Shown: in pieces, positions 15,291 to 45,740 of the stretch
Position numbering within the stretch: the first letter of the stretch is position 1
How the letters are laid out: every line of letters starts with the position of its first letter
Assembly: GCA_038503065.1 (NCBI GenBank)
Contig: JBCAMK010000011.1
Span: forward strand, 186,001 to 250,000
DNA: 64,000 nt
Direction of reading: 5' to 3'
Source: Paragyromitra xinjiangensis
Lineage: Eukaryota > Ascomycota > Pezizomycetes > Pezizales > Discinaceae
Made by a program: the position numbers and the translations under genes
Notes under the pieces: model-generated
The model's input: only the letters and a program-made list of their open reading frames with translations
Told to the model about the DNA's origin: nothing
Database searches by the model: none

Positions 15291-15594
15291 CTCGCTTAGG
15301 CGGAAGCAGAGGAAGCGGATCGAAGCGAGTCTAGGAGGCATATCAGCGGGAGTCAAATAAACGGAATCAAGACGTTACTTAGGAGGTTCTTTGCAAGCAG
15401 AGCTTGGTACTTTGAGCCTAAAAGTCATGATGTTAGCGAAGTACTATGGTACAGCGAGGTAGGGAATGGGTGTGAGGGAATAGGGGATGGGTGGGAGGGA
15501 ATAGGGGAAGCAATAGTAGGAAGGACGGGAGAGGTGGAGATTGGTGTCTTATTAGGCGTTGCTTTGGCGACGGCATGGCGACTACTAAGCGATG

Positions 15595-19751: not shown

Positions 19752-20179
19752 TCTCAGGGAACGAGGTCTTGTCAAGCCCTTTGGTATCCCTAAAGGTGAG
19801 CAGTGCTACTTGAACAAAACTTCACTACAATGATAATACAATGATTTCCACAGGCCTCACGTAGGGTAAGAATCGAAGTGATTCTGGGGTGTGACAGCGG
19901 CAGCGATAATGATGTTTCTGAGGTAGAAACAGAGATGGTATTTCTATAACAGTACGGTAGAAGTAAAGTAAGAGACGTTGCTTAAGGAAAGAAAGAAAAG
20001 AACAATCACAACCGCAGAAATCCATCGCTTATATACCCAATCTTCCCCTTTCCATGACTCATCCTTGACTCACCCAACCGAACCGCAACAAACACAACGA
20101 AAGAATACAATTACTAATCCTTAACCCTGCCCATGATGTAGCCCCGTTCCATTCTCTGGGCCTGACTCTGTCCGTGAAA
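19752..20179 (-). repeat. Gypsy A 5' LTR
   Basis: 428 bp, partner of 5731-6157, followed by the CTAAG duplication. Confidence 0.85.
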
Positions 20180-20184
20180 CTAAG

Positions 20185-22086: not shown

Positions 22087-22789
22087 TGTAACGGGTACGC
22101 CGTTACTGCCTCCAGTATGTGAGTAGATCAGGGCCGGACTGATGGGACTGTAGGAGCCTGCATCGGTGGGGTTGCTTCCACATGCAGAGAGCTACCGCGT
22201 CCCACTGATCTGGTTGATACAGAGGAACCGCATGTGCGTCAGCTGACGAGCTGGAAGCACATGGACGGCTGCATCTACCACTCCGAGGAAGTGGTAGAGT
22301 TCTGAATCAACCTGTGCAGTATGCATCAGCGGAAGCTGATAGGCAACGCACTGGCAGCGCTATCTACTAGTAAAACACATGCGGATTAGACTGAACTGCA
22401 CCGTGCATGTAGGACTGCAGTGTGCAGGACTATGCCGGTGGTTCATAGAGTCTAGAGTGGTCAGATTGCTAATGGAGGTGCGGCAGCTCTTGAAGCATAG
22501 CCCCCGGAAGTACGGAAGGTCTTCCGGAGTAGAACACCAGTCCATTTGGCAATAGGACTCCGGGTCAAACCCAGTCCCCCACTAGAGCACGGCAGAGCGA
22601 GGACTGCGGAACGCAGGTGTTAAATACATCGCGAATGCTCCACCCTGCTGCTCTGTTCTTCAAGCGATAGTTGAGCCCTTAAGATTCTTGAGTAGTTTGC
22701 ACGAAAAGAATCGGATTCTGAACCTGATCTATATCCATTTCGCAACGGCCGTACACCTAGCCTATCTACCTAGGCCTACCCCCGTTACA
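22087..22789 (+). repeat. Gypsy3 5' LTR
   Basis: 703 bp, TG...CA. Followed by GTAGAATCTTATTTCTC, where the primer-binding site should start; tRNA not assigned. Confidence 0.92.
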
Positions 22790-26483: not shown

Positions 26484-27149
26484 ATGTCCACAGGCTACAC
26501 CCCATACAATGACGGCATGCGTAAGACCTTGTCCGAGAGACAAAAGGCAAAGCGTCAGCGAAGCCATAGCCCTAGTGGAAACCCACCATCGAAGAGAAGA
26601 CTAGAAGAACCGCCAGCACAGCCAGTACATGGTCAGAGGCCTATACTGAAGGCTGAGTTGAACTGGAAGGTGCGGAAGCATATCAACAGGTGCCATGGTA
26701 AGTTCCTGTTTGATACTGGCTGCACCGGACCTATCCTCAGCGAGGAGTTTGTAAGGAAGGAAGGGATACCAACGGAAAAGCGTGAGGTTCCCATCCAGAT
26801 GCTTGATGCCCAGGGTGACCTGATGATGGGAGCTGGCGAGTATTTTACTGCCCCCCTAGACATGGTCATGGGCAAGCATGAGGAACTGATCCGTTGGGAG
26901 GTTGGACCTCTAGAGGGAGGCATCTCCGGGTATCTGCCTATCTCATGGGCACAGAAGCACAACCCAGACATCGATTGGCATACCGGCCGCATCCATTGGC
27001 GTTCCGATTACTGCCACAAGAACTGCATCCCCACTGACGTCCACATACAGGTGTGCGAAGACTGGGAGATGATGGCAGAGGACCGGGCCAATGTGCACCA
27101 GATTGGAGCTGCGGTTTGGCATGATCGTCGCGAAAAGCTTGATTTGCTA
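26484..27149 (+). pseudogene. Gypsy3 pol, 5' part: protease
   Basis: Starts ATG 26484 (MSTGYTPYND), 199 nt after the gag stop, so pol may be expressed from its own start. Protease motif FDTGCTGPIL (DTG at 77-79) and the conserved downstream block CHKNCIPTDVH...IGAAVWHDRREKLDLL. The frame is cut at TTGCTA (27144-27149) by the 13-kb element. Only a few foreign codons follow before a stop. The second half is at 40122-43169. Confidence 0.88.
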
Positions 27150-27166
27150 CCACCCGCCTTTTGCGT

Positions 27167-27198
27167 GTTACCATAGCCTTTGACACGCTATGGTAACA
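27167..27198. repeat. Terminal hairpin at the left end of the 13-kb element
   Basis: TGTTACCATAGC and GCTATGGTAACA are perfect 12-bp inverted arms with a 9-nt loop, about 17 bp inside the left end. Confidence 0.7.
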
Positions 27199-27414
27199 AA
27201 AATAGGCGAAATAGGCGAAAACGACCAATCGAGCTTTTTAATGTCTATCAAGAGACAACCAAAAGCATATCCCATGTTTTTCATTTGCTTTGACCGTGCT
27301 TTTACCGTGCTTTCACCGTGCTTTCAATAAGCTTTGACAGCCAATAGGTAAACTATCGAGACCTTTGGAAATGTAACTTGCGCGGCTCCTCGAAGCCATT
27401 CTGTAGATTCCCTG

Positions 27415-27690
27415 TACGCGATGATAGTCCTCTAGGAGCATTCTTGTACGCTGTCAGAGTGAATTGGGGAGGCTTTGTGTACACTTCTGAGCGTGTGTTG
27501 GGAGGCTTTGTGTACGTGATGATAGTCTTTTGGGAGCGTTCTCGTACACTGTCAGAGGGAATTGGGGAAGCTTTGTATATGCTTCGGAGCGTGTTTTAGG
27601 AGGCTTCGTGTACGCGACGATAGTCTTCTGGGAGTGTTCTCAAATCTCTCTAATTGTCATTTCGTATACTACTCTGACGCTGTCAGAGTG
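27415..27690. repeat. Left subterminal repeats with GTCAGAGT
   Basis: About three diverged units of 110-120 nt sharing GATGATAGTC, GTACRCTGTCAGAG and GGAGGCTTTGTGTAC. They end in the palindrome ACTCTGACGCTGTCAGAGT at 27671-27689. Confidence 0.75.
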
Positions 27691-27834
27691 ATACATTGTG
27701 CCCGGAGATTATATTTATTTCTTCTATTCTCTGCTATGCAATGCTATGCTATGCTACGCTAATCTATGCTAATCTATGCTAATCTATCATTCTATTCTAC
27801 GCTGTAATATACTTTCCCCTAAATCCCATTCCCA

Positions 27835-29780
27835 TCAACAGCCGTCACCAGAATCATCGCTATCGTCCGCAAGCAAATCCACCTCCGGGTTCCACACCAC
27901 CGCCGGTTTCCCTCCATCGCCAGTCTCCCATCCCGATAACCTTTTTACCTCCGTTAGTTGGATGCCGAGGATAATTCGCTGCGATTCTTTCGGTATTGTG
28001 TTCCACTGATTGGTATACTCATCGTAGACCCCTTCGCCTTGCAATCAGCTCTGATAATTGTACAATATCCCCCGTCGTGCAGACTCTGACGTGCAGACTC
28101 TGACATGCCGACTCTGACATGCCGACTCTGACGTTCCGACTCTGACGTTCGAATGGACACGGTATACACACAGGCTCACCTTTAAACGTCCCTCCTTCAA
28201 AGTTTTTCCTAAGATACTCCCCGAAGACCAATTGTCAAGAGCGTACCGGATAGCTACTGTCGCCAAAACCAAGGCCACTTAGCTAATCTCGTCGCTATAT
28301 TTTCGGGTGTGAGGTCGGCGTGCATATGTTTTTGCCGTACCAAGCACCGTGAATTACATTAGCGATTGCGAAATGGCAAAACATTTTCTTCGGGACCTGT
28401 GTTCGGGTTAGCACTCTACTGTGATCTGAAGGACGAGCGGTTAAGGAAACTACTGGTAACTCGCCTTTTTCTTCTCATCCGAAAAGTGGAAACGATGACT
28501 GTTATCGCGTATAAGCCTACGAACGCGATTAAGGAGGTCGTCTCCCTTCAATGTATCAAGGCCGTACACCTTACAAACACACTCCCTAGCCGCTTCGGCA
28601 AAGTACCCTCGGGAGGTTGATATACGGTCTGCCAACTTTATGCCAGAGCCTCAGTGTCAGCCTCCACTAACTGCGTACAGGAAAGGAAGGTTGATACCAT
28701 GTGAATTTCGGTATCGCCGATCTCGCTGAGTCGAATCGATCGCCCGATTCCCCATACGCCTCTCGAAACACAGAAACAGCCATCATCTCCTGCACGTCTG
28801 GCCGGGGTAGGGGTTTTCCGTCTGTATTCATAGTACGAATATATCTCTTGCAATTGACCAGTTGGGATTAAGCTCACCTCTATCCCTCAGTGTGCCTATT
28901 TTTCTCTTGTCCCGTGATCTTGCCTCACTAGGCGGGACCGAGTCTGACACCGTCGAGGCCGACCTCCTTTTCGGAAATTGCTGCCGGCATAGCTACCGCT
29001 CCCATTACTATCGTGTCCACTGCTTGAAGACAAATTGGAAACGGAGGACTATCAGTATGAGTAAGTAAATGTCAGAGTAAATGTCGAGTTGAAGCCGATG
29101 CAGGATACATATCCTATTTGAAGGGGATAGCTTACGCCAGGTCCAATAGACTTCCTCACAGGCGGCTGAAATGGCGTCGCAGGTCTATTGCAAGAGTATA
29201 GCAAGTACGGCCCGGAAGAATCATCATCAGCTTCTAGTTGCCCCCAAGTCCTCAAAATCTCCTAGATCTGGGCTTTGCTGAATGCTGGGGAGCGGGGTCT
29301 GGGAGTTAAGTCTAGCTCTCTCGGACTCCGCTGAGCACAAGGCGGATGTTGGGTAGCGGTGACAGCAACTGGAGGAGACGATAGTATGCTCAAGGGCTCG
29401 GTTTGGGGTGTCTGCGAAGGGGGAGGAAGAGTAGGGGGAGGAGGTGGCGGAGTAGGGGGAGGAGGTGGCGGAGTAGGAGGAGGAGGAGGAGGAGGTGGCA
29501 TGGTAGAAGGTTCGAAAGGAGTAGCTGGCACCAAAATGTTGGAACTTGCGAGAACATCTGCCCCCGTCGCCGTGTCAGAGTCGTACTCTGACTGGCTGGC
29601 TGCCTGGCTGTCTGGTAGTGTCAGGGCAGTGGTGGCCCTTCGACGTGTCGACGCGTGACCACCCGAGGGTTTTCTCGAAACTCTGCCACGTCTGCTGTCA
29701 GTATTTGTAGACGACGATGCAGCTGAATTACGCGTCTTTCGTTGTGTATCAGGGTATATTGCTTGACTTTTTGGAGGCAT
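27835..29780 (-). pseudogene. DUF6532-like cargo gene (tentative), probably frameshifted
   Basis: Start ATG 29780 (MPPKSQAIYPDTQRK). The disordered N-terminus has an S/T-rich segment and a long polyproline tract (about 29410-29500). Later blocks read RTWGQLEADDDSS, YFAEAARECVCKVYGL...NRVRRLIRDN, then VALVLATVAIRYALDNWSSG and GIQLTEVKRLSG. The order (disordered N-terminus, Tyr-Gly-Leu block, IAL-x-x-TAI-x-x-x-LDEW-like block) resembles the DUF6532 proteins of fungi, whose function is unknown. An intron at 29049-29135 contains GTCAGAGT motifs. A 14-nt tandem repeat of the same motif (28079-28150) lies within the 3' part. Several blocks are in different frames without clear introns between them, so I treat the gene as decayed. 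Family assignment is from memory of its pattern only. Confidence 0.4.
28079..28150. repeat. 14-nt tandem repeat CCGACTCTGACATG
   Basis: Five consecutive units, each carrying ACTCTGAC, the reverse complement of GTCAGAGT. Confidence 0.85.
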
Positions 29781-31072
29781 GGCGAGGATGTTTAATACAA
29801 ATACAATCAAGGGGGGGAAACAAGGGTGATGGGGCGAAACAGGGGAGTGAAGGCAGTAATGCAAGGCTATGATGGTTGGTAGAAGAGGGAGAGGGATCGT
29901 AAGAAGAAAGGGGGATAGATAAAGGGGGATCCACGGTACTGGGAGGCCTGAGACCCGCGGAGCTGGAAGGATCTGCGACGCTAGGCTCAAGTCGAATATC
30001 ATGTCTTCTCACTCGAAAAAAACCTTCCTATTCCTCCCAATAAATACAAATTTGCAGTACTCCGAGCCCGTCCCCATAGTAAAAGTAAACCCTCCGCCAC
30101 ATAATAAAGATAACCCATGGAAAAAACAGAAACGAAATAAAGAAAACCAAAATATGCCCCCGATACCCGTCCCATACCTATAGTAATATCCTGACAAAAT
30201 AAGAAGGAAACTGATACCCCCGACGGCGCAACTCTGACAGAATAGGAGGTCTGACAAATATCGAGTCAGCCGCCTGTTTCGAGCTCATCGGGCTCCGGAC
30301 AAAACTAGTAAGAAAACGAATACCCATATCCCCCCGATACCCGTACCCGCAGCAGCACCCAGACAAAAGAAAAGAAAACCAATACCCTGTCCCCCGATAC
30401 CCATCCCGTACCCATCCCGTACCCATCCCGTACCCATAGTAATACCCGAACAAAACAAGAAAGAAAACCAATACCCATATCCTAACCGGCGCAACTCTGA
30501 CAGAATAGAAGTCTGACGAGTGCCGAGTCAGTCCTCTATTTCGAGCTCATCTGGGCCCCCGCGTCCAATAATCTAGTCTCTTAAAACCGCTGGAGGTATC
30601 TTGCCGATCAACGTGTCAAAGACCTCGTCTGTGTCTGCTATTAGGCTCTCCATAATTCCCCATGCATATAGCATAGGGCTCTGGCGCTCCCGCTGGGCCT
30701 TCTCGATCAATGTATCGATCGTTTGGAGATTAACTAGACGCTCGGTGTTTTGCTCTTCCTTTTGCCCGATGCGGCGGACCCGACTCCATGCCTGATGCTC
30801 CGATGCATAGGAAAGACCTTGCTCTACCATGATGGTATCAGAAGCGTTGATAGTGAAGATTGATGCCCTCGTTGCTGCAGAGATAGGAGAGGACCAGAAC
30901 GTCGATGTCCTTGGTTTTATTGAATGAATCCTTTATTTTGTCACGATTCTTATTGCTTAGACCACTGTAGACAGCGAAGCAGGTAATCCCGAGCAGTCGA
31001 ACGTACTAGTTTTATGTTAGAACATGATCGAGCGATTAGAAGACCAGGTGGGCCCGACCCGGCCGCCAACAC

Positions 31073-31162
31073 TGACGCTGACGCCAACACTGACACTGAC
31101 GCTGACGCCAACACTGACACTGACACTGACACTGACACTGACACTGACACTGACACTGACAG
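31073..31162. repeat. (ACACTG)n array inside an SNF2 intron
   Basis: About 14 copies of ACTGAC/GCTGAC within the 169-nt intron 31006-31174; on the sense strand it is TGTCAG repeated. Confidence 0.85.
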
Positions 31163-33439
31163 AAGGCTACTTACTTCTTGAATTAGCCATTGCGACAGAG
31201 GCCAATAGACCCACAATATAACCTTCTTCCCGCCCAAAGTGACCAATTCGTGCAATCGATCTTTGAGTCGACCCAATTTTGGACTGCAGAATTCCATTGC
31301 CCGGACCATATCCTCATCGCTCATGTTGGCCATAGATTCCGGGTAGAAATCTGTTCCCCTGTCCGGCATTTGCTCGCGGAACTTCGTCAGCAGAGATTTC
31401 ACCTTCAAACGGTGTGGACGGCCTTCATCCGCCCGGTCCTTGCTGAATAAGTTCTCCGTGGAAAACTCCTCGGCAAAGGAAGCATAGGCAAGCAAAGGGG
31501 ACAATGAAACCAAACGAATATAACGCCAACGGGGGCCAAATTTATGGCCTGGAATTGGCGCTTGCTGCCCTTCTGCTATTGACCTGCCAAAAGAAGCGCG
31601 TCTTCGGGCGTAATTGTCGACTAGGCAGGAATAAACATCCTTGGATCCGTCATTTGCGAACTGCAGGCGAGTGGTGACAGTCTTCATGACGGGTATATCG
31701 ATAATCGACCCACCCGAAACGGAATCCTGCTGACCATCGAGCGGCGGAGTATCAGAGTACGCAAAATCTCTTGCGCATATCCTCCCACTATCCGCAGGAG
31801 TCTGACAAATGTTGCCGCTGGCTCGGGGTGATCATTCCTGTGCGCTGGAGGTGCTGCAACTTCGATGCATTATTGAGATTGCCCCAGATAAAGGCGTTCC
31901 AGGCTTTTGTTGTGCAGTGGACATAAGAGCCATGTGCCTTATAATCCCGGAACGGATCTGCGACAGGAGTAAAGGCTGCATCCAGATTATTTCCGTCCTC
32001 GCTGGGTCGATCAGGGTTTTGGAACCACGCTCCTAACTCGATGTCGTGTTTATTGGCAAACGTATCTGGGGCAGGTGGTCCGATAGCCACTCAGGCCGTT
32101 GTAGGACCCGACATCCCCACCGGAGGTCTGACATGGTACTTACTAGAGGGGTGGCCGTTAACATCCATTTGGCCTCTGGATTTAGCGAGTCCAAATTTTT
32201 TGCCCACATTGCCATGGCATTGTTTGGGTCGCTGCGGGAAAGTAATCCTGTGGTGGGGCTAATGACGCCTGCTGTGGGCGCCGGACACTCGGAAGCGATG
32301 AGCTTCGTCGAGTACTAAACGCTGAAGAAGCAAGTCTTCAGTACCCCAAAATCTTGGCCCCGGAAGTCGCTTGGTGTTCCAACGTTTCATCAACGTTTCC
32401 TTTGTGGTAATGATGACATGGCGCCACGGGAATTTGCTGGCAGAGTTGATTTGGTGCCAAGCCCTCCTATCGAAAAAGTGTTGCCGTAGTGGAGAATCGG
32501 AGTGAGTAGAGTGTTGCTACGAATTGCCTCTTGCCATTCAGAAATCATTGGAACCGGACTAAAGATCACAAACGTCAGAGTCAGTACTGACAGTGTCGAG
32601 TGAGTGTCAGAGTTATTGGTACCAGATTATCAACGTCGGTCCCATGAAGATCTTATCCGGGTTCCGGGGCTTCATATCTCCCTCCTTGAGTGTCCCTTCC
32701 CTTTTGGATCGTTCGTAGGTCCCGAGAGCCTGCTGGTAGAATTCCGTAGTCAAGTTTTGCTGGACCCGACGTGCTTCGTACTCATGAGCTTGAATACACA
32801 GTAGTCCCAGCAGTGTCATTGTCTGGTTGGTCCGAGTCAGGAATAAGAAATAATATCAGAGTGATGTGGAACGGTTTGATTGAACACTTACTTTACCCGT
32901 GCCACAGTCATCAGCGAGAGTCCCCCATTTGCTAAACCCTCTTCCTTTTCCTTCATCCAATTGATGCCGATTATCTGGTGGTCCATAAATTTGAATGGAG
33001 GTTTGATCAATGGAAAAGCCCGTGTCGCCGGGTCTATGCCCAAGGCAGTGAACGACTCTTGGAGATTCTCCCTTTGGAAGATCTCGTTATCCAGGATTCT
33101 GTGCAACCTAAATTAAACGCCGACTGTCGAGTGTACTGTCAGAGTGGGTTGTCAGAGCATGACTCGTACCATTCAACACTAGCTGTATCTCCTTCGGCGT
33201 CATCGGGCCCTTCCTTCCGAGAATCATCTCCAGTCTCACCAAGAACTATTTTATCGAATGGAGCGGCAATTAGATCAAAGTCGGCATCTGTGTTGATCAG
33301 AACCTTCGGCCTGGGTTTAACCTGGCTGTCAGGCCCGCCCGGCCAATGCCGGTGAGACGCCAGCGTGGGTTTCACTATTTCACCGATATCTGGTTCCGAC
33401 TGCGAACTGGCCGAATCTTCGCTGCTATCCGCCGGTGGG

Positions 33440-33600
33440 TTATCCCCTCCCCCCTCCTCCCCCTTCCTCCCCCCTTCCTCCTTCCCTTCCTCCCCCTCCC
33501 CTCCTTCTGCTTCCCCTTCCCTCCAGCTGCGCCCTGATCCTCCCCTCCCCTCCCTTCCTCCCTCTGCTTCCCTTCCCTTCAGCTGTGCCCTGATCTTCTG
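33440..33600. repeat. CT-rich low-complexity tract in the SNF2 N-terminal region
   Basis: Polypyrimidine sequence (CCCCTCCTTCC variants) that reads on the minus strand as Gly/Arg/Glu-rich peptide. Confidence 0.7.
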
Positions 33601-35102
33601 TTTCATCCTCCATCGGGTCCTGCTCATCAATGGGTGTGGGTGTTCTAGCAGCCAGGCCTGATTGCCTAGCCGGGTTGCGCGCGGGGGATAGCGTCTCACT
33701 GGGGCCGGTCAGGCATTTCAACATCTTGATCTTCAGGAGCTTCGTTGCCAATGCGAAGGTTTGCCACTCTGCTGGTGGATCGCCGGAGGCTTTGGTCGGT
33801 CCTCTCCCTCTCCCTCTCCCTCTCCCTCTCCTCATTGTCTGCGGGTTCGGTGTTTCGTCCTGCGCTGCCGACTCTGACACTGACACATGGGGAGGTGCTG
33901 GGGCTGGAGCTGGAGCTTGTGGAAGCGGTCGTGAGTGATACCATTAAGATCCCCATGCGGCTAGCATTGGATACAGCAAACTCCCAATCCGCCTCTGTAA
34001 GCTCATAAGCGTCCAGATCAAACTTCGGTTGCGGTGATGGCGTGGTGCTGGCCAAGTACTGAGCGACTGTAACCCAAGGAAAGATAGGCCATATTCGGTC
34101 TCTACCCAGCGCTCGAAGTCACCCCAGTACTGCAGGCGGCGTTGGATGTTTGCCTGAAACTTTAGGGCGCTCCTTTTCGGCACTTCCGGTGGGTGATTAT
34201 CCCATACCATTTGAAGATCGACTCGTTTCTCAATCGTGGGTTCCGGATCTCCACGGTCTTCCACTCGAATCCTGCTGCGTGGTGGGCTCCCAGAGTCTCG
34301 CTGGGATGGAGCTGTACGGGCTGCAGGGACGGCATCGCGCCTTGCCAAAGTTCGAGACCGAGAAGTACTCCTAGCACCAGTGCTTCTTCTAGCACCGACC
34401 TGGGTCGAAGGAGAGGCTTGAGAGGTAGAAGGGGCCCGGGTTGCTGGCCTTCTCGCACTTGAGGTGGCGGTCGAAGGAGTGGCAGACGAAGAAGAAGTGC
34501 CTGCGGTTGCTGATCGTCGAGATGCCCTTGGAGTAGTAGCTACAGAAGCCGGAGCTGGAGCCGCTGGCCGTCTCGGGGTGGCAGCCGGGGTGCCGCCACT
34601 GCGTACGGCCTGCCGAGCAGCACAGCCTAGAACCCGATGGGCATCGCGAATATCGTTGAGAACTACGGGGTCATTGGGACCAAGAGCAAAAAAACCCGAG
34701 CACCATCGACTAGGCCCTCGAGTATGGTCATATATTCCTATTTATATCAAGAGAGGTCAGAGTGTGCGATGTCAGAGTGTGCGATGTCAGAGATAACGGA
34801 GGTCAGAGTACGGGATGTCAGAGTGGGGGTTTAGATTGGTATACCTGAAGTTTCCCCACTTGAGGTTGCGGGCCGGCGGGGACAATATTCCTTGTGGTAA
34901 CTTGCGCTAGTGAAGGCGACTGAGCAGTGGCATACTTCGTCTTCCATGCTACTAGCTCTGAAACGGCATCGGTAACAGCATCTGAGCCGAGAAATTCCTG
35001 CGTCTCCGACTTGTCCAACTTAAAGGCAGTTCTCACATTTTCGACGGTATAATTAGATGCGGCTATCGGCCACTCTCGAATATTACCACCTGCTTGTGCC
35101 AT

Positions 35103-35656
35103 TGTCAAGTCGCTATCGTAGTAGGTATGCTAGTGCTGTCAAAGAAGTCGCTTGGGTGGAGGACTCGGATAGGCGAGTATAGACTTGCAGCTAGCCGGGC
35201 GAGCGGTCTCTTTATATACATAGCGGGGTATAGTCCTCTGACGTTGATTGTTCGATGTCTCTGATGCCCAAATGCTGCTTCCCGAGATTGCAAGGGTGGT
35301 GGTGGTTGTGGTGGTGGTGGTGGTGGTGGTGGTAGTGATGGCGAGGCGGAAGCGGAGGTTGAGGTTGCTGTGTTTGTTCAATGACGTTGGCGGCTGGTCT
35401 AGCCAGGTTAGGTGCTTCCGGCTGCAGCCTCGTTTCCCGATTCGGCTTATCCCTTTAACAAGCAAACAAAGGCAGTCAACAGCCACACGAATCTGACCTA
35501 CAATCCAGAACTTATATACGTCCGCCCAGATCTCACCACGTCAGAGTTAGAGTCGGTTGGTGTCAGTGTCAGTGTCAGTGTCAGAGCTAGAACCCTTTGT
35601 TTTTGCTTCGTTTGTTTGATTGTCTAACTTCAAGCAGCGATCCCGCCGCCCTTTCA
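35103..35656. promoter_or_regulatory. Divergent intergenic region between SNF2 and transposase
   Basis: Holds a (GGT)n tract at about 35296-35335 and a cluster of TGTCAG/GTCAGAGT motifs at about 35538-35587. It presumably contains both promoters; no core promoter element was identified with confidence. Confidence 0.4.
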
Positions 35657-36313
35657 ATGCCCTCTGGACTGGATTTTCTTTGTGGAATCTGCGGAAAGTC
35701 CTTTGTTAGCCCAGGTGGCTTGACTGTCCATCATCGTCGAACTCACAATAAGCAGTCCCGAGATCGTGTAAGGTTCGATGAAGACGACGCGGACAATAGC
35801 TGTCCCGGACAGGAGGAGGAGGAGGAGGAGGAGGAGGGTGCGCCCCGAAGACCAGATACTTTTCCTGATGCGGGCATCGCTCTACCATGCCCACCAGTAA
35901 CTCATCCATGTGATAGCCCCGATTGGCATCCTTTGTTTCCTTTCGAATCAAAGTTACAATGGGACTTCTGCCGTACCCATGTAGAGGAGAATACGGGAAA
36001 GGCCGCCCTGGATCGTATGATACGTCGTGGAATATTCAATGATAAGATCAATATTAAAAGTGCCGATCATTTCCGCGAGTTGATACATGCTATGGATGAC
36101 GGACTTGACTGCGAATGGATGGAGGGTACGGTTAATATCGAAGGTGAAGAGGTGGAATACTGGTATCGAGATCCAATGGCAATCCTAAGATATCTTTTCG
36201 GCCACCTACCTTTCAAAGACCACTTGACTTATTCTCCGATAAAGGAGTATGGGTCCGACGGCAAACGATTATATTCTGAGATGTGGACAGGCAACTGGTG
36301 GTGGCGGCAACAG

Positions 36314-36408
36314 GTAAAAGCCCTTCTAGTCTCGGCTCCCTGACTCTGACACTGACACTGACACTGACACTGACACTGACACCGATGTTTATATTGACTT
36401 CGAACTAG
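36314..36408 (+). other. Transposase intron loaded with TGACAC repeats
   Basis: Donor GTAAAA, acceptor CGAACTAG, 95 nt. It contains CTCTGAC followed by six tandem ACTGAC units. Splicing keeps the frame (WWWRQQ|ENAPKG). Confidence 0.8.
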
Positions 36409-37761
36409 GAGAACGCTCCCAAGGGGGCAACGATTGCACCGATTATTATCGGTAGCGACAAAACAATGCTATCCACATTGAGCGGTGATAAGAGTGCATG
36501 GCCAGTATATATGTCGGTTGGAAACCTCGCGAAAAAGAAACGACGAGCCGTCAGAATGAATGGGTTGGTCTTGCTTGGAATCCTCCCTAAAATCCCAAAG
36601 AACCCAGCAAGAGAAACGACGAGAAAGACCTTTCACGAGGCAATCCGGCAGATGTTGCGCCCTTTTGAATCCACAGGCCAGGAAGGGGCAGATGTCGTTT
36701 GTGCAGACGGATATACAAGGAAAGTCTTTCCCGCATCGCGACATGGATAGCCGATTACCCAGAAATGGTCACTCTGACATTGGTAAAGTCTATGTGGTGC
36801 CCTAGGTGCGAATGCACCCCGACAACTTAAGTACTCTGACTGGGGTCCCGCCACCCCCAGAGATCCCACCCGCTATGCTCTAATGTCGACAGCGGAGCTC
36901 GAAGCCGTAGGGCAGTGGAGATTTGATTTCGAAAACTTTACCGCCCACCACGTTCACTGCAATATCTATCATGCAATCAATCCAGACCGGCTTCATCAAT
37001 TACTCAAGGGCGTCCTGAAGGACCATACATGGAAGTGGGTATGTACATATCTCGTACAGGAGCATGGACCACACGTCATCGCGGAGATTGATCAGCGGTT
37101 CGCAGAGATACCCCTGTTTAGTGATCTGAAGAACTTCGGTCACAAATTTTCCCAGATTTCTCAGTGGACGGGGGCAGAATACAAGCACATGCTGAAGGTG
37201 TGGATCGGGGTCTTAGCACCATTTTTTAAAAGACGAGCGGAGCACTTGAGATGTCTGAAACATCTTACTGAATTCATTATGTTTGCCGGCTATCACTCCC
37301 ATACAGAGAACACCCTGGAAATGATGGATAAAGCAATGGCGGGCTACGAGTCTCTTTTGGGGAACTTCGTGGAATCCAGGGACTCTGGAAACTTTGACCG
37401 CATACCAAAGCTTCACATGATGCGCCATTACACCGAGAGTATACGCGACTTCGGATCATGTGACAACTCTGACACAGAGCAAAGTGAAGCCGCGCATTCC
37501 TGGATGATCAAAGAGGCCTATCGATCAACGAACAAGGTAAAGCCGCTTTTGCAAATGCTAAGATGGGAGGATAGATTGTTCAAACTTAAAGCACGAACCG
37601 CGCTGCTGCAACATCTGATAAAGACCGGCTCACGATGGGCAACAGTCTGTTTATCTCTTGTGGATGAGTTACGAGTCGGTCGGAAAGAAAGGAAAACTGT
37701 CATAAGTGGGCATATTCCCAAGCAAGTTTTGATGGGAAAACTGCAGCTACCGCGCCACATC

Positions 37762-37885
37762 AACGTGTCAGCGTCAGAGTTGACGCCCACGTCAGAGCTG
37801 GCCCCCACGTCAGAGCTGGCCCCCACGTCAGAGCTGGCGCCCACGTCAGAGTTGGCGCCCACGTCAGAGTTGGCGTCCGCGTCAG
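37762..37885 (+). repeat. 18-nt in-frame repeat encoding TSELAP
   Basis: About seven units of ACGTCAGAGYTGGCNCCC. Each contains GTCAGAG and is read in phase as T-S-E-L-A-P within the transposase. Confidence 0.9.
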
Positions 37886-38604
37886 AGTTGCTGAAGCTTG
37901 TACGGGATTATCTCTTTACAATCCAATCCGGGGCGAACACTAGTTATCATTTGACACAATATCGAAGCAGTATCCCCTGGATTGCAGCACAAAAGGTTAC
38001 GATGGGCACAGGAGTGGTGGCCAGCTTCCCTTCTCACAACGACCCCGAGGAATTCTGCACAGAATTTGCGCGATGTGTGACCGATTGGAGGGGAGATGGC
38101 TCCCGGTACGACCACGTCCTCATTCAAACAGGCGCAGGGTTAGTGGCCCTAACCAGAGCTACTTCAATGAGACTGGCTTGAAGCCGGCAGAGCTCATTTG
38201 TGTTTTCACCTTCATCGACAAGGTCCCCGATGGAAATAAAGACAACGGTCGTCCAAAGTTTCGCAAAATAGGCCACGAACTGGCGTTGGTGGAATATCTG
38301 ACTGTGATGAATGCCGGTAGGCCTAACCCAAACAGCGGCATGATAGAAGTCCGTAAACAATCGGAGCTATCGGATACCGGAGTCACGACAAAGCGGAGAA
38401 TTATTCCAGTGAGCCGTATATCCCGTGCTGTTCACCTCATCGCTGCAGAAGCAGGCAAAAAGGCGATATTTCACCAACAACTACATCGATGCAGAGACGT
38501 TTAACACGGTTTATTAGGGAAGGTCCGCGTTAGAGGGTGGGTGTCAGAGGGTCGGTGTCAGAGTGTTGGTGTCAGACTTGGTGTCAGAGTGTTGGTGTCG
38601 AGGC

Positions 38605-39445
38605 GAAGTCCGAGTGTGTCGAGATTGAGGACAACAAAGAGGGAATTCCTCCAGACCAGCAGCGTCTCATTTTCGACGGCAAGCTAGGCTACTCAGAAGG
38701 AATCGACTTTGCACTTGGTCCTTAGCGCCGTGGTGGTTCCCAGTAGATCGGATGGCAACTGCAGGACGCGATTACGGGAAATGTTTTCATATTGATGTTG
38801 GATGAGAACAAGAAAGGCATTCCTCCAGACCAGCAGCGTCCCATTTTCGACGGCAAGGCTAGGCTACTCAGAAGGAGTCGACTTTGCACTTGGTCCTTAG
38901 CCGTGGTGGTTCCCAGTAGATCGGATGGCACTGCAGGACGTGATTACGGGAAATGTTTTCATATTCATGTTGGATGAGAACAAGGAGGCCATTCCCCCAG
39001 ACCAGCAGCGTCTCATTTTCGACGGCAAGCTAGGCTACTCGAAGGAGTCGACTTTGCACTTGGTCCTTAGTCTTCGTGGCGGTTCCCAGTAGATCAGATG
39101 GCAACCGCAGGACGCGATTACGGGAAATGTTTTCATATTCATGTTGGATGAGAACAAGGAAGGCATTCCTCCAGACCAGCAGCGTCTCATTTTCGACGGC
39201 AAGCTAGGCTACTCAGAAGGAGTCGACTTTGCACTTGGTCCTCGGTCTTCGTGGCGGTTCCTAGTAGATTAGATGGCACTGCAGGACGCGATTACGGGAA
39301 ATGTTTTCATATTCATGTTGGATGAGAACAAGGAAGGCATTCCTCCAGACCAGCAGCGTCTCATTTTCGACGGCAAGCTAGCGCCACCCAGAAGGAGTCG
39401 ACTTTGCACTTGGTCCTTAGTCTTCGTGGCGGTTCAGTAGATCAG
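38605..39445 (+). pseudogene. Array of five truncated polyubiquitin-derived units
   Basis: Five direct units spaced 173-174 nt (ATTCCTCCAGACC at about 38645, 38819, 38992, 39165 and 39339). One frame reads [19 protein letters not shown], which matches ubiquitin residues around 32-48. A second frame in the same unit reads [16 protein letters not shown], matching the ubiquitin C-terminus. Normal polyubiquitin units are 228 nt; here the segment between GK and QKEST is deleted, which shifts the frame. Each unit therefore has a stop in every relevant frame. It is a captured and amplified host gene fragment, not a functional gene. Confidence 0.85.
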
Positions 39446-39539
39446 ATGGCAACCGCAGGACGTTATTACAGGGAATTTTTTCATATTCATGTTGGATTAG
39501 GATAGGTCTTTAGCTAGTACTTGGGGTGTTTCTGTTTCT

Positions 39540-39960
39540 TGTGGCATACTGGTAGCGAACATAGCGAAAGCACGTCTAGTAGCGAATCAAAGGACTTAAA
39601 CTAGCAAACATAGCGAAAGCACGTAAAATAGTAGGCATGTCAGAGTTAGTGGTAGCAAAATGGTAGACATGTCAGAGTTAGCAGTAGAGTGCACGGATAT
39701 TAGCGAGCATAGTAAAAGCCCGCGGTAGCAAAGGTAGCAAAATGGTAGACATGTCAGAGTTAGCGGTAGAGTGCACGGATATTAGCGAGCATGGTGAAAG
39801 CCCGCGGTAGCAAAGGTAGCAAAATGGTAGACATGTCAGAGTTGCACAGATATTAGCAAGCCCGGTGAAAGCCCATGGTAGCAATGGTAGCAAAATGGTG
39901 GGCACGTCAGAGTGGGTGGTAGAGTGCACGGATATTGGCGGGCATCGCGAAAGACCATGA
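39540..39960. repeat. Right subterminal repeats with GTCAGAGT
   Basis: Four to five units of about 85 nt: GTAGCAAAATGGTAGACATGTCAGAGTT followed by GTGCACGGATATTAGCGAGC. Each carries one octamer. Confidence 0.85.
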
Positions 39961-40121
39961 AAGGAGAGCTAACACACAAAGCCTCCCGAAAGTATACGGG
40001 AAGGCTACGAGATTGCTCGCTAAAGGCGCCATGCGCTTTGAGAGACTACCAAAAGCACGGATATGCTATGGGAGGCGTGTGGTAGGACCCATATGTTAGG
40101 CGAGGCTACCGGAAATTGCTA

Positions 40122-43100
40122 AATTTTACCGCGGCCTACGACCCTTTTGGGGCTTTTCGCGACGATGAGAGTGGAGGGGATGTGAGCCTGAGGCTACCAG
40201 TGGAGTATAGGGAATGGGCGGATGTCTTCAGCAATGAGAAGAGCTCAAAGCTGCCGGAGCATGGTGCTTTCGATCACCACATCAACCTACAACCAGGAAC
40301 AAAGCCACCATTCGGGCCCTTGTATGCTTGCTCTGAATCCGAGCTCAAGGCCCTCCGAGAGTTCCTGAACAAGGCCCTGCCATCCGGAAAGATATCAAGG
40401 TCCAATTCCCCCGCCGCTGCGCCTATCCTGTTCGTTCCTAAGCCTAATGGTACTCTCCGCATCTGCGTCGACTACCGGGGCCTTAACAGGATCACAGTGA
40501 AGGACAAATACCCGCTACCATTGATGTCTGAGTTGAGGGACAGGCTGAGAACCGCTAAGGTCTTTACCAAGATTGACCTGAAGGATGGGTTCAACCTGTT
40601 GAGGATAGCCAAAGGGGACGAGTGGAAGACGGCGTTCAGGACCCGGTATGGCTTGTATGAGTACAATGTCATGCCCTTCGGCCTCTGTAATGCCCCTTCG
40701 TCGTTCCAGGCTATGATCAATGAGGTGTTGCATGACCTATTGGATCTGGGCGTGATAGTATACTTAGATGATATACTTATCTACACAGAGACAATTGGGG
40801 AGCATCAACGCCTCGTTCAGAAGGTGCTGCAGAGGCTTCGAGAGGCAAGTCTGCATGCACACATAGACAAGACCTTCTTCCACTTGAAGGAGGTTGAGTA
40901 CTTGGGATACCAGATCTCCGAGCGTGGCATTTCTATGTCTAAAGAGAAGGTCAACGCCGTGAAGGACTGGCCAGTCCCTAGGAACGTGAAGGATGTGCAA
41001 GCCTTCCTAGGCTTTGCCAACTTCTACCGCAGGTTCATCGCCGGGTTTAGCAAGGTGTGCAAACCACTTACTGACCTGCTGAGGAAAGAAGGGAAGTGGC
41101 ACTGGACCACTGCCTGTGACAGGGCTTTCGAGGAACTCAAGCAGCTGTTCACCAGCGAGCCTATCTTGGTCCACTTCCACCCACAGAGACGCACAGTTGT
41201 AGAGACTGATGCTTCTGACTTTGCGAAGGGAGCTGTGATGTCCCAGTATGGCGAGGATGGCAAGCTGCATCCTGTTGCTTTCTATAGCAAGAAGCACTCG
41301 CCAGCTGAGATCAACTATGACATCCATGACAAAGAAATGGGTGCCATAGTAGCTGCGTTCCGGGAATGGGAGCACCTTCTTAAGTCCGTTGAGGGAGAGG
41401 TTGTGGTCTTCACCGATCATAGCACTGAGTACTTCAACAGTACTAAGGTTTTGACCCGCCGACAGGCCAGATGGGCTGAGGACCTGGCGGGGTTTGATTT
41501 CAAGGTCATCTACAGACCCGGTGAGCGGAATGGCAAGCCTGATGTCCTATCTAGACGTTGGGATCACCGTCTGGGAGAGGGAGGTGAACCTGCTGCCCCA
41601 CAGCCGCAGTTGTTTTTCCGTCCTGGACAGCTTGTCATGAACTCAGCCAGACTCAGTGCTGTGAGAGTTCACCAGCTGCAATCGCCGTTCCTGCAGAAGC
41701 TGAGAGATGTGTCGTTGGGAGATGAGCAGTGGCAAGGGATCCGTAAGGCTTTGGAGGAGAAGAAGACTGGACTCGACCAGGCCTTGTCCCTTTCTGAGGG
41801 ACTGGTGTTCTTCAAGAACCGCTGGTACGTCCCGGAAGGCAGAGACCTCCGGCAAGAGATCTTCTCTGAGAACCATGATAGCGGGATCGCAGGGCACTTT
41901 GGGCAGTACAAGACCGCTGAGAGAATCAAGGCGAACTTCTACTGGCCCAACATGGACAAGGACATAGAGGAATACGTCCGCAGCTGTGATAGCTGTCAGA
42001 GGAATAAGACAGCTCGCCACAAGAAGTATGGTGAGCTGCTTCCCTTGGAGATTCCCTATCGTCCCTGGGCATCGATTTCTATGGACTTCATTGTGGGACT
42101 ACCTGAGTCCAATGGGTACACCAAGGTGTGGGTCATAGTTGACCGCTTCTCCAAGATGGCTCACTTTATTCCGCTGCCAACGCTGAATAAGACTGAGGAC
42201 ATGGCGAAGCTCTTCCTTACTGAGGTATGGAGACACCACGGGCTCCCTGAGGACATAGTCTCGGACAGAGACAGCAAGTTCCTGTCCCACTTCTGGCAAT
42301 CATTGATGGACCTCCTCTCAGTTAAGCTGAACCTATCGACGGCCTTCCACCCACAGACAGATGGCCAAACGGAACGGGTTAACCAGACGCTAGAGCAGTA
42401 CATGCGTACGTACTGTTCCTATCAACAGGACGACTGGGCAGAGTCACTACCTCTTGCGGAGTATGCCTACAACTCTGCCATCTCCGAGGCCACCAAGTAC
42501 TCGCCGTTCTGCGCCAACTATGGGTTTGAACCTAGAACCAACTGGCCCAAACCAAAGCCGTCTACTGAGTGGAGCAATTCAGCGAGCGAGGTGATCATTT
42601 CCCAGTGGGAGACTATCTGGGGACACATGAACGCAAACCTGGCAAAGGCAAGACTCCGGATGGCCTGGTGGTATGATAAACACCACATGAAGGCGCCAGA
42701 GGTAAAGCCTGGGGATGAAGTGATGCTTGATCGCCGCAATGTGCAAACAAAGCGGCCAATGAACAAGCTGGACCGCAAGAAGCTCGGTCCCTTCAAGGTT
42801 GTGAAGGCTGTAGGCAAGCGTGCTTACCAGCTAGACCTACCCCCGCAGATGAAGATTCATCCTGTGTTCCATGTCAGCCTACTGGAGCCATACAAAGCTC
42901 CTGCAGACCCGCGGAGAAGAGTGCCCCCGCCGGAGCCAGAGGAGATAGAAGGCCAGGAGAACTGGGTGGTCAACGAGGTGGTGGATTCGAGGGTGAACCG
43001 GCAGGTGAAGAGGGTGGAATACCTAGTGCTCTGGGAAGGATTTGAGCAGGAGGACGCTACTTGGGAACCATGGGAGAACCTGAAGAGGACTGCGGAGAAT

Positions 43101-44060: not shown

Positions 44061-44459
44061 TCGGGACATCAGCAAAAATAATTATTTCCTCCCTCAGCTC
44101 CAGGAGGCGCTGGAGACTCCTGGAAAAAATGTGCCTATCTGGAGGAGCAAATGGTGACCAACCTCCTTCGGGAGGCACTGGGAGGAGCCAGCAAGCACTC
44201 CGGGAGACTCTAGGAGATCGATATAAGCGCTCTTAACGTGCCATGGAGAGCCATGGAGAAGCATAAGTTATACCTGTCACCCTACTCAATTCACTGATGT
44301 CACACTGTCACTCAGGTTTTGAAAATTATTTTGACTAATTATTGACTATCTAATGGATCTATATACATCGAACGAGTCCCCGCATCTTCAAGCTTGCCCC
44401 ACTGCATCCTACTCCTCCCACTCCTCCCACTCCTCCTATTCCGAGCCTGCTGCTGAGCT

Positions 44460-45740
44460 TGCCCTGGAGTCAATTCGGAGGCAGAAAGGCACGGGATTCG
44501 GAGTCTATTCAGCAGTCTATTCAGCAGCCAATTCAGCAGGATTTGGAGGCAAGCAGGCAGCTGCTTCGGAGGCTGCTCGGGAGGAGGTTCGGGAGTCAAT
44601 TTGGAGGCAGGAAAGCACGGGATTCGGAGTCTATTCAGCAGCCAATTCAGCAGCCAATTCAGCAGGATTTGGAGGCTTAGAAACAGCTGATTCAGAGTCT
44701 ATTCAGGAGTCAATTCGGCAGTCAATTCAGCAGGATTCGGAGGCTCAGAAACAGCTGATTCGGAGTCGATTCGGAGGCAGGAAAGCACGGGATTCGGAGT
44801 CTATTCAGCAGTCAATTCAGCAGCCAATTCAGCAGGATTTGGAGGCTTAGAATCAGCCGATTCGGAGTCTATTCAGGAGTCAATTCAGCAGTCGATTCAG
44901 AGGCTCGGAAACAGCCTATTTGGAGGCAGGAAAGCATGGGATTTGGAGTCTATTCAGGAGTCTATTCGGCAGTCTATTCAGCAGTGGATTCGGAGGCTTG
45001 GAAACAGCCGATTCGGAGTCTATTCAGGAGTCAATTCAGCAGGATTCGGATGCAAGCAAGCAGCTGCTTCGGAGGCTGCTCGGGAGGAGGTTCGGGAGTC
45101 AATTCGGAGTCTATTCAGGAGTCAATTCAGCAGGATTTGGAGGCTCGGAAAGAGCCTATTCGGAGGCAGGAAAGCACGGGATTCGGAGTCTATTCAGCAG
45201 GATTTGGAGGCTTAGAAACAGCCGATTCAGAGTCTATTCAGGAGTCAATTCAGCAGTCAACATCAGCAAAAACAAACGACATTCCTCTGTGGCCTATTTG
45301 ACCTCTGTGGCCTATTTGGCTCCTATTTGGCCTCTGTGGCCTCTGCAAAGGTCAACATTCCTCTGTGGAGGTTTCCGAGGAAATTTCGATATTTTCCTCT
45401 GCAGAGGCCACAGAGGCCACAGAGGTCCAAATAGGAGCCAAATAGGTCACAGAGGTAAGAACATGATCCTAATTTCAAATAGGTCATTTTTTGTTCTTGC
45501 TGATGAATTCAGCAGGATTCGGAGGCTTGGAAACAGCCGATTCGGAGTCAATTCGGAGTCTATTCAGGAGTCAATTCAGCAGTGGATTCGGAGGCTCAGA
45601 AACAGCCTATTTGGAGGCAGGAAAGCACGGGATTCGGAGTCTATTCGGAAGTCAATTCAGGAGTCAATTCAGCAGTGGATTCGGAGTCTATTCAGGAGTT
45701 GATTTGGAGGTAAGCAAGCAGCTGATTCAGCAGCTGTTTG
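44460..45740. repeat. 12-nt-based minisatellite, plus-orientation copy
   Basis: Reverse complement of the 2950-4235 array (GATTCGGAGTCTATTCAGCA modules). It also contains a larger Gly/Arg-type module, GAGGCAGGAAAGCACGGGAT. Confidence 0.85.
45261..45505. mobile_element. 245-bp foldback MITE with CATCAGC ends
   Basis: Begins CATCAGCAAAAACAAA and ends TTTTTGTTCTTGCTGATG, flanked by AA (45259-45260 and 45506-45507). Nearly the whole element folds: CCTCTGTGGCCTATTTGG motifs on the left pair with CCAAATAGG...CACAGAGG on the right. Removing it and one AA restores the minisatellite unit exactly. Confidence 0.85.

What the first reader, a model, noticed from the sequence alone, without database searches (positions are those of the whole stretch)
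27150..40115. 13-kb Plavaka-like transposon with helicase and DUF6532-like cargo, inserted in a retrotransposon
Seen: a duplication TTGCTA brackets 12,966 bp, and its removal restores gypsy3 pol in frame and at the expected length. Inside are a Plavaka-like transposase, a divergent SNF2 ATPase and a third gene resembling DUF6532. From the families: CMC-type transposases normally travel with at most one accessory protein. Inference: the helicase and the third protein may be part of the transposition machinery, because they share the element's motif in their introns. A 6-bp duplication and the absence of long terminal inverted repeats are also unusual for CACTA-like elements.
Basis: partly seen in the sequence, partly recalled or inferred. 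Interest (0 to 1): 0.93.

Follow-up and report, generated by a model that had tools for sequence, protein, structure and literature searches.

The report
Fungal jumping gene carrying chromatin remodeler
A 13-kb fungal transposon carries its transposase together with a SNF2-type chromatin-remodelling enzyme and a protein of unknown function (DUF6532) that often sits beside this kind of transposase in this genome; both extra genes look selected, so they probably help the element move or escape silencing.

Summary
The transposon is real, but its ends were misplaced. Comparison with 17 uninterrupted paralogues of the host retrotransposon and nine other copies puts it at 27126-40164 (13,039 bp), with a perfect 13-bp inverted repeat (CGTCGCGAAAAGC) and a 2-bp duplication (AT). 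TTGCTA is internal, so the "6-bp duplication" and "no inverted repeats" fall away: the ends are ordinary for Plavaka. The cargo claim holds and widens. All ten copies read carry DNA of the Plavaka transposase, SNF2 ATPase and DUF6532 genes. Between two subfamilies (copy J against F and G) these genes show dN/dS of 0.17-0.31. A distant second family (30% transposase identity, CATCA..TGATG ends) carries DUF6532 plus two SNF2 genes of another lineage. Genome-wide, 53 of 97 Plavaka loci have a head-to-head DUF6532 within 10 kb (rotated mean 1.5, maximum 11; retrotransposon control 2 of 124). So DUF6532 looks like a regular partner and SNF2 a recurrent extra. The motif GTCAGAG(T) is dense through the element, densest in introns; a homologous intron from elsewhere seems to keep it. 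My reading: a sequence-directed chromatin-opening or anti-silencing module, like plant VANC. That mechanism is inferred. The window copy is broken. Neither association turned up in the papers searched.

The parts
27126..40164 (.). whole Plavaka element, 13,039 bp, inserted in a Ty3/gypsy pol
   Evidence: element-empty site junctions (17 of 17 listed empty sites); ends shared by 10 copies
27124..27125 (.). target site duplication, left copy (AT)
   Evidence: 2-bp match in 8 of 10 copies
40165..40166 (.). target site duplication, right copy (AT)
27126..27138 (+). left terminal inverted repeat CGTCGCGAAAAGC
40152..40164 (-). right terminal inverted repeat (CGTCGCGAAAAGC on the minus strand)
35657..38514 (+). 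Plavaka transposase gene, two exons (35657-36313, 36409-38514), N-terminal C2H2-like zinc finger; reading frame broken in this copy
   Evidence: exons mapped from sister copy J; PF18759 1.5e-82, 7.1e-19 and 3.9e-10 on the window's own pieces; frame breaks seen
30528..35102 (-). SNF2 ATPase gene, six modelled exons (35102-34845, 34737-33151, 33107-32892, 32822-32623, 32558-31175, 31005-30528): roughly 600-aa N-terminal part of unknown fold, then the helicase core; frame broken in this copy, core open exon by exon in sister copies J and K
   Evidence: dN/dS 0.28 for J against F and G
27835..29781 (-). DUF6532 gene, four modelled exons (29781-29149, 29048-28698, 28650-28184, 28038-27835); exon borders approximate, frame broken in this copy
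   Evidence: PF20149 7.2e-22; genome hit C11:214216-214845; dN/dS 0.24-0.29 over three stretches
28039..28183 (.). DUF6532 intron with 5 GTCAGAG motifs
   Evidence: homologous intron read-through in P0061
31006..31174 (.). SNF2 intron with 11 GTCAGTG-type motifs
34738..34844 (.). SNF2 intron with 5 GTCAGAG motifs
36314..36408 (.). transposase intron with 1 GTCAGAG and 5 GTCAGTG-type motifs
37760..37895 (+). 18-bp tandem array in the transposase coding region, units holding GTCAGAG (TSELAP repeats in the protein)
   Evidence: sequence; seven motif positions 37773-37881
38630..39480 (+). five tandem ~174-bp units derived from a polyubiquitin gene, not a continuous reading frame
   Evidence: unit positions 38651, 38825, 38997, 39171, 39345; PF00240 7.7e-5, below Pfam's cut-off, on a 33-aa piece; outer borders approximate

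Best explanation
This is a complete-ended, now broken copy of an autonomous-type Plavaka (CMC superfamily) cut-and-paste transposon. Shown: ends, 2-bp duplication, three-gene content in ten copies, selection on all three genes between two subfamilies, and recurrence of DUF6532 (at about half of the Plavaka loci) and SNF2 (in some families) beside Plavaka transposases in this genome. Inferred: the transposase cuts and joins; DUF6532 is the general Plavaka partner, probably a DNA-binding or transposase-assembly protein (the role TnpA plays in plant CACTA elements, from recall); the SNF2 ATPase is drawn to the element through the amplified GTCAGAG(T) sites, by DUF6532, by its own unknown N-terminal part or by the transposase zinc finger, and there moves nucleosomes or strips host silencing factors so that the element stays expressed and its ends stay accessible. 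In effect this would be a fungal counterpart of the plant VANC anti-silencing system, with an ATPase as the effector.
For: Junctions and ends. Gene identities. Selection, J against G, changes per sites: SNF2 core 36/1773 nonsynonymous vs 36/509 synonymous (p 1.5e-7), SNF2 N-terminal part 24/898 vs 28/309 (p 1.1e-5), transposase 32/1786 vs 50/505 (p 1e-14), DUF6532 22/691 vs 23/205 (p 2.6e-5). Recurrence: family 2 at C11:1526418-1543631 with DUF6532, two SNF2 genes and transposase between CATCA..TGATG ends and a TA duplication. DUF6532 linkage: 53 of 97 Plavaka loci within 10 kb, other orientations 8, 6 and 3; rotation null mean 1.5, max 11 over 2000; integrase control 2, 5, 7, 5 of 124. Motif: GTCAGAGT 37 in the element vs 0.45 expected, 2 in 51 kb of flanks; in copy J 20 GTCAGAG per kb in introns, 5 in other non-coding, 1.5 in coding. 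P0061, 75% identical to our DUF6532 exon, reads into what looks like the same kind of motif array at the same intron. C-to-T changes are about 8 times more frequent per site at CpG than elsewhere in copies B-F pooled (82 against 37 changes), as CpG methylation would give.
Against: No protein was shown to bind the motif. No methylation, expression or excision data. Family 2 lacks GTCAGAG (1 in 18.5 kb) and its strongest own word is only 21-fold enriched against 83-fold, so motif arrays are not general to SNF2-carrying Plavaka. Part of the motif set (GTCAGTG runs) looks like a slippage microsatellite. The CpG excess is absent in A (0.7-fold) and H (1.2-fold) and slight in G (1.8-fold); B-E were compared with F without an outgroup. 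dN/dS against copy H is higher for the SNF2 core (0.41). 44 of 97 Plavaka loci show no head-to-head DUF6532 within 10 kb (36 of 97 within 16 kb). One SNF2 near a Plavaka (C10:1039826 and 1047055) is on the same strand, not divergent. In the divergent relative on C6 the SNF2 gene is split by a rearrangement and its DUF6532 was not found in the expected place. The C7 copy of family 2 has no DUF6532 hit in the expected orientation nearby.
Confidence: 0.5

Rival explanations
1. The SNF2 ATPase and DUF6532 protein act in the transposition reaction itself (synapsis, strand exchange, gap repair or target access, in the manner of Rad5-like ATPases), not against silencing. The motifs are then ordinary binding sites of the transposition complex.
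For: Best solved relative of our SNF2 is RAD5, a repair ATPase. DUF6532 goes with many Plavaka loci, including those whose ~4.5-kb spacing leaves no room for SNF2, as a core transposition partner would. Some motifs lie near the right end.
Against: Motifs are spread over the whole 13 kb and densest in introns, not confined to the ends. SNF2 hits lie upstream of only a few Plavaka loci (the PF00176 search misses most family-1 copies, so this is a lower bound), so SNF2 is not required for transposition as such.
Confidence: 0.25
2. SNF2 is a captured host gene riding as a passenger with no benefit to the element.
For: The same element carries an obvious passenger, the polyubiquitin repeats at 38.6-39.5 kb. 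The SNF2 genes of family 1 and family 2 look like different lineages, so acquisition is repeatable. The eight close copies may descend from one recent ancestor.
Against: dN/dS 0.28-0.31 between subfamilies (J against F and G) for core and N-terminal part; the passenger ubiquitin units have no continuous frame, the SNF2 core has; relatives exist elsewhere at 33-59% identity, one (P0003) with all main helicase motifs, P0005 with an altered Walker A, the other four fragments; recurrence in the same place between DUF6532 and transposase.
Confidence: 0.12
3. The GTCAGAG/GTCAGTG arrays are slippage products of a simple repeat and not protein sites; only the gene linkage is meaningful.
For: GTCAGTG arrays are short tandem repeats; copy number varies between copies (29 to 51 GTCAGAG in six copies).
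Against: GTCAGAG units stand at varied spacing, on both strands, in six of nine modelled introns and both intergenic spacers of copy J; the divergent C6 relative keeps 21 in 10 kb; P0061 and the translated introns of P0002 suggest the same motif in other genomes.
Confidence: 0.3
4. One reading: a 12,966-bp element with a 6-bp duplication TTGCTA and no long inverted repeats.
For: TTGCTA does occur at 27144-27149 and 40116-40121, and cutting there keeps the frame.
Against: Empty sites end at 27125 and resume at 40164; other insertions share the sequence outward to CGTCG/CGACG and differ immediately beyond; TTGCTA is as common as chance and part of the element in other copies.
Confidence: 0.01

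Closest known systems
PlavakaB DNA transposons (CMC/CMCT superfamily; Kojima 2025, PMC12730594: abstract, section 3.2.2 and search passages seen)
   Same: Plavaka transposase domain over its whole profile; 2-bp duplication; family 2 has exactly the reported CATCA..TGATG ends
   Different: our family ends in CGTCG..CGACG, which resembles CATCA..TGATG but is not identical; carries SNF2 and DUF6532: 'SNF' does not occur in that paper's main text and 'DUF' only in an author's name
TET-bearing Plavaka and KDZ elements of fungi (PMC12730594)
   Same: fungal cut-and-paste elements that carry a chromatin or DNA-modification enzyme, proposed there to escape silencing
   Different: the enzyme here is a SNF2 ATPase, not a TET/JBP dioxygenase
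VANDAL elements with VANC anti-silencing proteins, Arabidopsis (PMC5735166: abstract and the section on tandem repeats; PMC10398659: abstract)
   Same: short motif amplified in tandem arrays in non-coding parts, introns of the element's own genes included; family-specific; extra protein beside the transposase
   Different: unrelated transposase superfamily and unrelated proteins; binding and loss of silent marks are reported there, not shown here
En/Spm (CACTA) two-protein elements with TnpA (recalled)
   Same: transposase plus a partner protein; short motif repeated near the ends
   Different: genes here are divergently transcribed, the motif is spread through the whole element, and DUF6532 has no shown relation to TnpA
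Rad5/SNF2 ATPases
   Same: helicase core with conserved motifs; best solved match RAD5 at 7.5e-14
   Different: a separate clade with P0003 and P0005 (Trichophaea hybrida) in the quick tree; no RING domain in the Pfam scan of core and first 436 N-terminal residues (the low-complexity linker was not scanned)

Membership tests
Plavaka transposon | Plavaka transposase domain PF18759 above cut-off | tested here: met
   277.9 bits against a cut-off of 26.3 on copy J; two window pieces also above cut-off
Plavaka transposon | 2-bp (PlavakaA, B) or 3-bp (B) target duplication | tested here: met
   2-bp match in 8 of 10 copies; none in J and K
Plavaka transposon | terminal inverted repeats | tested here: met
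   13 bp perfect in 9 of 10 copies, copy E with 1 and 2 mismatches to it
PlavakaB lineage | termini CATCA..TGATG (PMC12730594) | tested here: not met
   our family has CGTCG..CGACG; family 2 on C11 meets it. No transposase tree was built, so the lineage is not assigned
PlavakaA lineage | termini TGT..ACA | tested here: not met
CMC/CMCT superfamily | C(2)C motif between second D and last E; catalytic DDE residues | tested here: inconclusive
   CPRC seen in the transposase by eye; catalytic residues not checked one by one
SNF2 ATPase family | SNF2 domain and C-terminal helicase domain with Walker A, DEAH and QAxxRxxRxGQ motifs | tested here: met
   PF00176 4e-25, PF00271 4e-6; GTGKT, DEAH and QAWSRVRRIGQ in the sequence of copy J
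DUF6532 family | PF20149 above cut-off | tested here: met
   78.7 bits against cut-off 24 on a hand-joined model; uninterrupted frames of other family copies reach 72.1 bits
VANC-like sequence-specific anti-silencing system | short motif amplified in element non-coding DNA | tested here: met
VANC-like sequence-specific anti-silencing system | element protein binds the motif and lowers silencing marks in trans | not testable with these tools
   needs binding and methylation experiments
TET-bearing fungal transposon | TET/JBP dioxygenase gene inside the element | tested here: inconclusive
   no TET/JBP domain in the Pfam scans of the pieces and models scanned; no six-frame TET search was run

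The most novel reading that the evidence does not exclude
Plavaka elements have evolved a dedicated, element-encoded chromatin-opening system: DUF6532 is the general DNA-recognition partner of Plavaka transposases, and several lineages have independently recruited SNF2 ATPases as effectors that are steered, in our family, by motif arrays bred inside the element's own introns. It would be a fungal, ATPase-driven parallel of plant VANC anti-silencing.
Probability: 0.3. Interest if true: 0.85.

Novelty: new variant of a known kind. Interest (0 to 1): 0.66.

Why it matters
Fungal transposons were known to carry TET/JBP enzymes; a chromatin-remodelling ATPase kept under selection inside a cut-and-paste element would be a second, different way of meddling with chromatin. 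The DUF6532 link gives a role and a testable partner to a domain of unknown function that one paper lists beside Plavaka among the additional domains of two Ganoderma species (PMC8955403, one passage). The intron motif arrays make the anti-silencing idea directly testable.

Tried and rejected

Led nowhere: a protein-database search with a first DUF6532 composite found nothing, probably because part of it was read in a wrong frame; a search with a six-sequence alignment found two proteins, one of them a relative of our family's DUF6532 (P0061), the other close to the one at L058 (P0062). A scan of viral contigs for the SNF2 family found no relative. KDZ (1 hit) and hAT (7 hits) were too few to serve as controls for the linkage test, so integrase was used. 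DUF6532 structure prediction could not be run: the queue was full three times. The short left-end-only copies were looked at in one of eight cases (L060): about the first 210 bp match, no right inverted repeat in the ~980 bp read, so whether they are mobile non-autonomous elements is open.

Limits: gene models have no RNA support; as modelled five of nine introns have GT..AG borders, and the borders of one SNF2 intron and the three DUF6532 introns are approximate. Merged locus counts include many copies of the same families, so they are not independent; five DUF6532 lineages at 34% identity or less in all pairs were read (L054 with L057, L051, L055, L058, ours), plus the family-2 exon at 22% to ours. 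In the rotation null, eight contig lengths were not known and were set to the mean of the rest. The first-pass linkage run used guessed lengths and is replaced. The C7:212-226 kb and C10 cases and the C1 and C7 copies of family 2 are read from hit tables only. Copies I, L, M and N seen were not fetched. Earlier wording of mine that the motif is 'mostly in introns' was wrong (15 of 46 in the window copy) and has been changed to 'densest in introns'.

Full report
WHAT IS THERE. A search of that genome with the left junction gave two main groups: element copies that start at window 27126, and copies of the host gypsy element that run only to 27125. The right junction mirrors this: element copies end at 40164, gypsy copies resume at 40164. 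I paired the two capped lists by eye: all 17 gypsy places listed continue with a 3-base overlap, so these are uninterrupted sites. The overlap GAT is one base too long for the duplication, because the element itself ends in G: in the other copies the element ends in G after the inverted repeat and the bases beyond differ. The scripted check gives a 13-bp perfect inverted repeat in 9 of 10 copies and a matching 2-bp flank in 8 of 10 (A AT, B TA, C AA, D GG, E TG, F TG, G TA, H CA; J and K do not match). Ten copies were read in full: A (window), B-H at 96-99% identity over the main aligned blocks, J and K at about 95% by full alignment with A, F, G and H. B, C, D and E contain further nested insertions. 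Four further partial or rearranged copies in the lists were not fetched.

TTGCTA appears 30 times in the window against 29.7 expected. The left one sits at element positions 19-24 in copies A-H; J and K differ there; TTGCTA lies within 100 bp of the right end in all ten.

GENES. The window copy is broken by frame shifts in all three genes, so the gene models were read from copy J and mapped back. Plus strand: transposase, two exons, Plavaka domain 1.5e-82 over nearly the whole profile, N-terminal zinc-finger-like stretch just below Pfam's cut-off; J itself has one late stop. Minus strand, head to head with it: SNF2 gene, six modelled exons; its 764-aa core is open in J, with GTGKT, DEAH, TATP and QAWSRVRRIGQ motifs; its N-terminal part, roughly 600 aa of which the first 436 were scanned, has no Pfam match, and the two are joined by a low-complexity stretch whose length and frame differ between copies. 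Farther left on the minus strand: DUF6532 gene, four modelled exons. The right end holds five ~174-bp units of polyubiquitin origin without a continuous frame. I did not look for a copy in which all three genes are intact.

SELECTION. Counting changes between the two subfamilies (J against F, G, A and H), dN/dS is 0.28-0.41 for the SNF2 core, 0.28-0.32 for its N-terminal part, 0.16-0.17 for the transposase and 0.24-0.29 for DUF6532 over three stretches (a first DUF6532 row was in the wrong frame and is discarded). J against G tests reject equality at p 1.5e-7, 1.1e-5, 1e-14 and 2.6e-5. Within the young subfamily changes are few and, where there are enough to count, mostly nonsynonymous, as for dead copies (A against F: SNF2 core 11 N and 4 S, ratio 0.79; N-terminal part 7 and 1, 2.4; transposase 5 and 1, 1.4; F against G: transposase 7 and 1, 2.0; DUF6532 5 and 1, 1.5; but SNF2 core only 1 and 1, 0.29). 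The extra genes were therefore kept while the element was moving.

NOT ONLY HERE. (1) A divergent relative on C6 has the transposase at 53-72% identity and SNF2 exons at 45-72%; the SNF2 gene is split by a rearrangement (second half at C6:1468131-1469410, other strand), and its DUF6532 was not found where expected. (2) A distant family, read in full at C11:1526418-1543631 (17,214 bp), has a 20-bp inverted repeat with one mismatch beginning CATCA, a TA duplication, a 1003-aa open frame with the Plavaka domain (4.8e-67), a DUF6532 exon (1.8e-10) and two SNF2 genes (one with PF00176 at 4.4e-23; of the other, a PF00176 hit at 1.5e-16 and Helicase_C at 1.2e-10). The hit tables show a like set on C1 (DUF6532, two SNF2, transposase) and parts of one on C7, where no DUF6532 hit lies in the expected orientation. 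(3) C7:212-226 kb shows transposase, SNF2 and DUF6532 hits in the same order and orientation (hit tables only). (4) C10 has a SNF2 and a Plavaka hit 6.6 kb apart on the same strand, which does not fit the arrangement. In a quick tree our SNF2 groups with P0003 and P0005 (Trichophaea hybrida) and the two family-2 genes form a separate clade on a long branch; the program warns about long branches, so 'two acquisitions' is likely, not proven.

DUF6532 AS PARTNER. Hits for PF18759 (125, merged to 97 loci), PF20149 (88, merged to 82) and, as control, integrase PF00665 (126, merged to 124) were compared. Within 10 kb, 53 of 97 Plavaka loci have a DUF6532 divergently upstream; same-strand upstream 8, convergent downstream 6, same-strand downstream 3. 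Rotating DUF6532 positions 2000 times gave a mean of 1.5 and a maximum of 11. The integrase control gave 2, 5, 7 and 5 of 124. Seen from the other side, 54 of 82 DUF6532 loci have such a partner (63 of 82 within 16 kb). The median distance in the first-pass run was 4.5-4.7 kb, too short for a SNF2 gene of this kind, so DUF6532 is the usual partner and SNF2 an addition. The Plavaka count is a lower bound (123 of 168 candidates scored). Copies of one family are counted apart; five DUF6532 lineages at 34% identity or less in all pairs were read, plus family 2.

THE MOTIF. GTCAGAGT occurs 37 times in the element against 0.45 expected from its own three-letter make-up, and twice in the other 51 kb. 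In copy J the density of GTCAGAG is 20 per kb in introns, 5 in other non-coding DNA and 1.5 in coding DNA (18, 16 and 13 of 47), six of the last in an 18-bp array inside the transposase gene. Six of nine modelled introns carry GTCAGAG, and seven of nine carry it or GTCAGTG, in copy J and likewise in the window copy. The C6 relative keeps 21 GTCAGAG in 10 kb. P0061, 75% identical to our DUF6532 exon, reads into an intron whose translation (repeated SES, CQS) fits the same array; P0002 reads into runs of SDSDSD and LALALTLTD that fit it too. For these two only protein letters were seen, so the DNA motif is inferred. Family 2 does not share the motif.

MECHANISM. The closest model in print that I read is VANC of Arabidopsis VANDAL elements: a short target motif, multiplied by tandem repeats in introns of the element's own genes and upstream regions, varying fast between related elements (PMC5735166, abstract and one section; PMC10398659, abstract). 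Here the arrangement of motifs is alike; the proteins are not. A SNF2 ATPase could supply the remodelling. A hint that the host methylates the element is the ~8-fold per-site excess of C-to-T at CpG in copies B-F pooled (82 CpG against 37 other changes); single copies range from 4.8 (D) to 10.2 (E), while A (0.7), H (1.2) and G (1.8) show little or none, and B-E are not polarised. The step from 'selected and motif-rich' to 'anti-silencing' is inference.

LITERATURE. Kojima 2025 (PMC12730594; abstract, section 3.2.2 and search passages) gives the Plavaka ends and duplications and TET-bearing Plavaka; 'SNF' does not occur in its main text and 'DUF' only in an author's name. Searches for Plavaka with transposase, DUF6532, Plavaka/SNF2/CACTA combinations (none of the 8 papers listed holds both Plavaka and SNF2), transposon with SNF2 and accessory-protein terms and Plavaka or DUF6532 (of 10 papers listed one holds both) found no paper whose title, abstract start or viewed passages describe a Plavaka with SNF2 or name DUF6532 as its partner. 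Only open-licence papers are held, and the original Plavaka description (Iyer et al. 2014, recalled and cited in passages seen) was not read. The one paper with both names lists Plavaka and DUF6532 among domains additional in two Ganoderma species (PMC8955403, one passage), in line with the linkage. Passages of two Marasmius oreades papers were also seen: one reports KDZ and Plavaka as dominant DNA elements there (PMC8290104), the other mentions one Plavaka-related deletion and does not contain SNF2 (PMC9674265).

VERDICT. Ordinary ends, unusual cargo. The two firm and apparently new points are that DUF6532 is a regular head-to-head partner of Plavaka transposases in this genome, and that SNF2 ATPases have joined that pair in at least two families, in ours under purifying selection. 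On checking, several details were mended (intron counts, core length, copy identities, relatives' completeness); none called for a change of the odds.

Noticed in passing
38630-39480: Five tandem ~174-bp units derived from a polyubiquitin gene in the right part of the element, without a continuous reading frame: a captured host gene fragment.
   Followed up: partly
37760-37895: An 18-bp tandem array inside the transposase coding region, units holding the GTCAGAG motif and coding TSELAP; J and K are one unit shorter.
   Followed up: partly
L060 and C2, C5, C7, C8, C11, C14, C17 hits: Eight short hits share only the first ~200-218 bp of the element's left end at 91-95% identity; in the one read (L060) no right inverted repeat was found in ~980 bp. 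Possible non-autonomous relatives or composite ends.
   Followed up: partly
L048:1418-1577: The first ~160 bp of family 2's left end recur at 36 further short hits (79-93% identity), apparently a shared left end of a large group of elements.
   Followed up: no
L044-L045 and L046-L047 (copies J and K, C17): Two 99.7% identical copies in opposite orientation about 57 kb apart, neither with a matching 2-bp duplication; possible recombination or segmental duplication.
   Followed up: no
3366-4185, 20059-20864, 44335-45702: Repetitive arrays encoding the same low-complexity peptides (VNSAVNSAGFGG, SIQESIQQ) on different strands; a second repetitive family (RRRRKLRQRIDDLQEAAEAQ) at 8076-8543, 14396-15360 and 21639-22191.
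   Followed up: no
57647-58762: Open frame of 371 aa with a stretch that looks like an HNH nuclease core (recalled resemblance, not searched).
   Followed up: no
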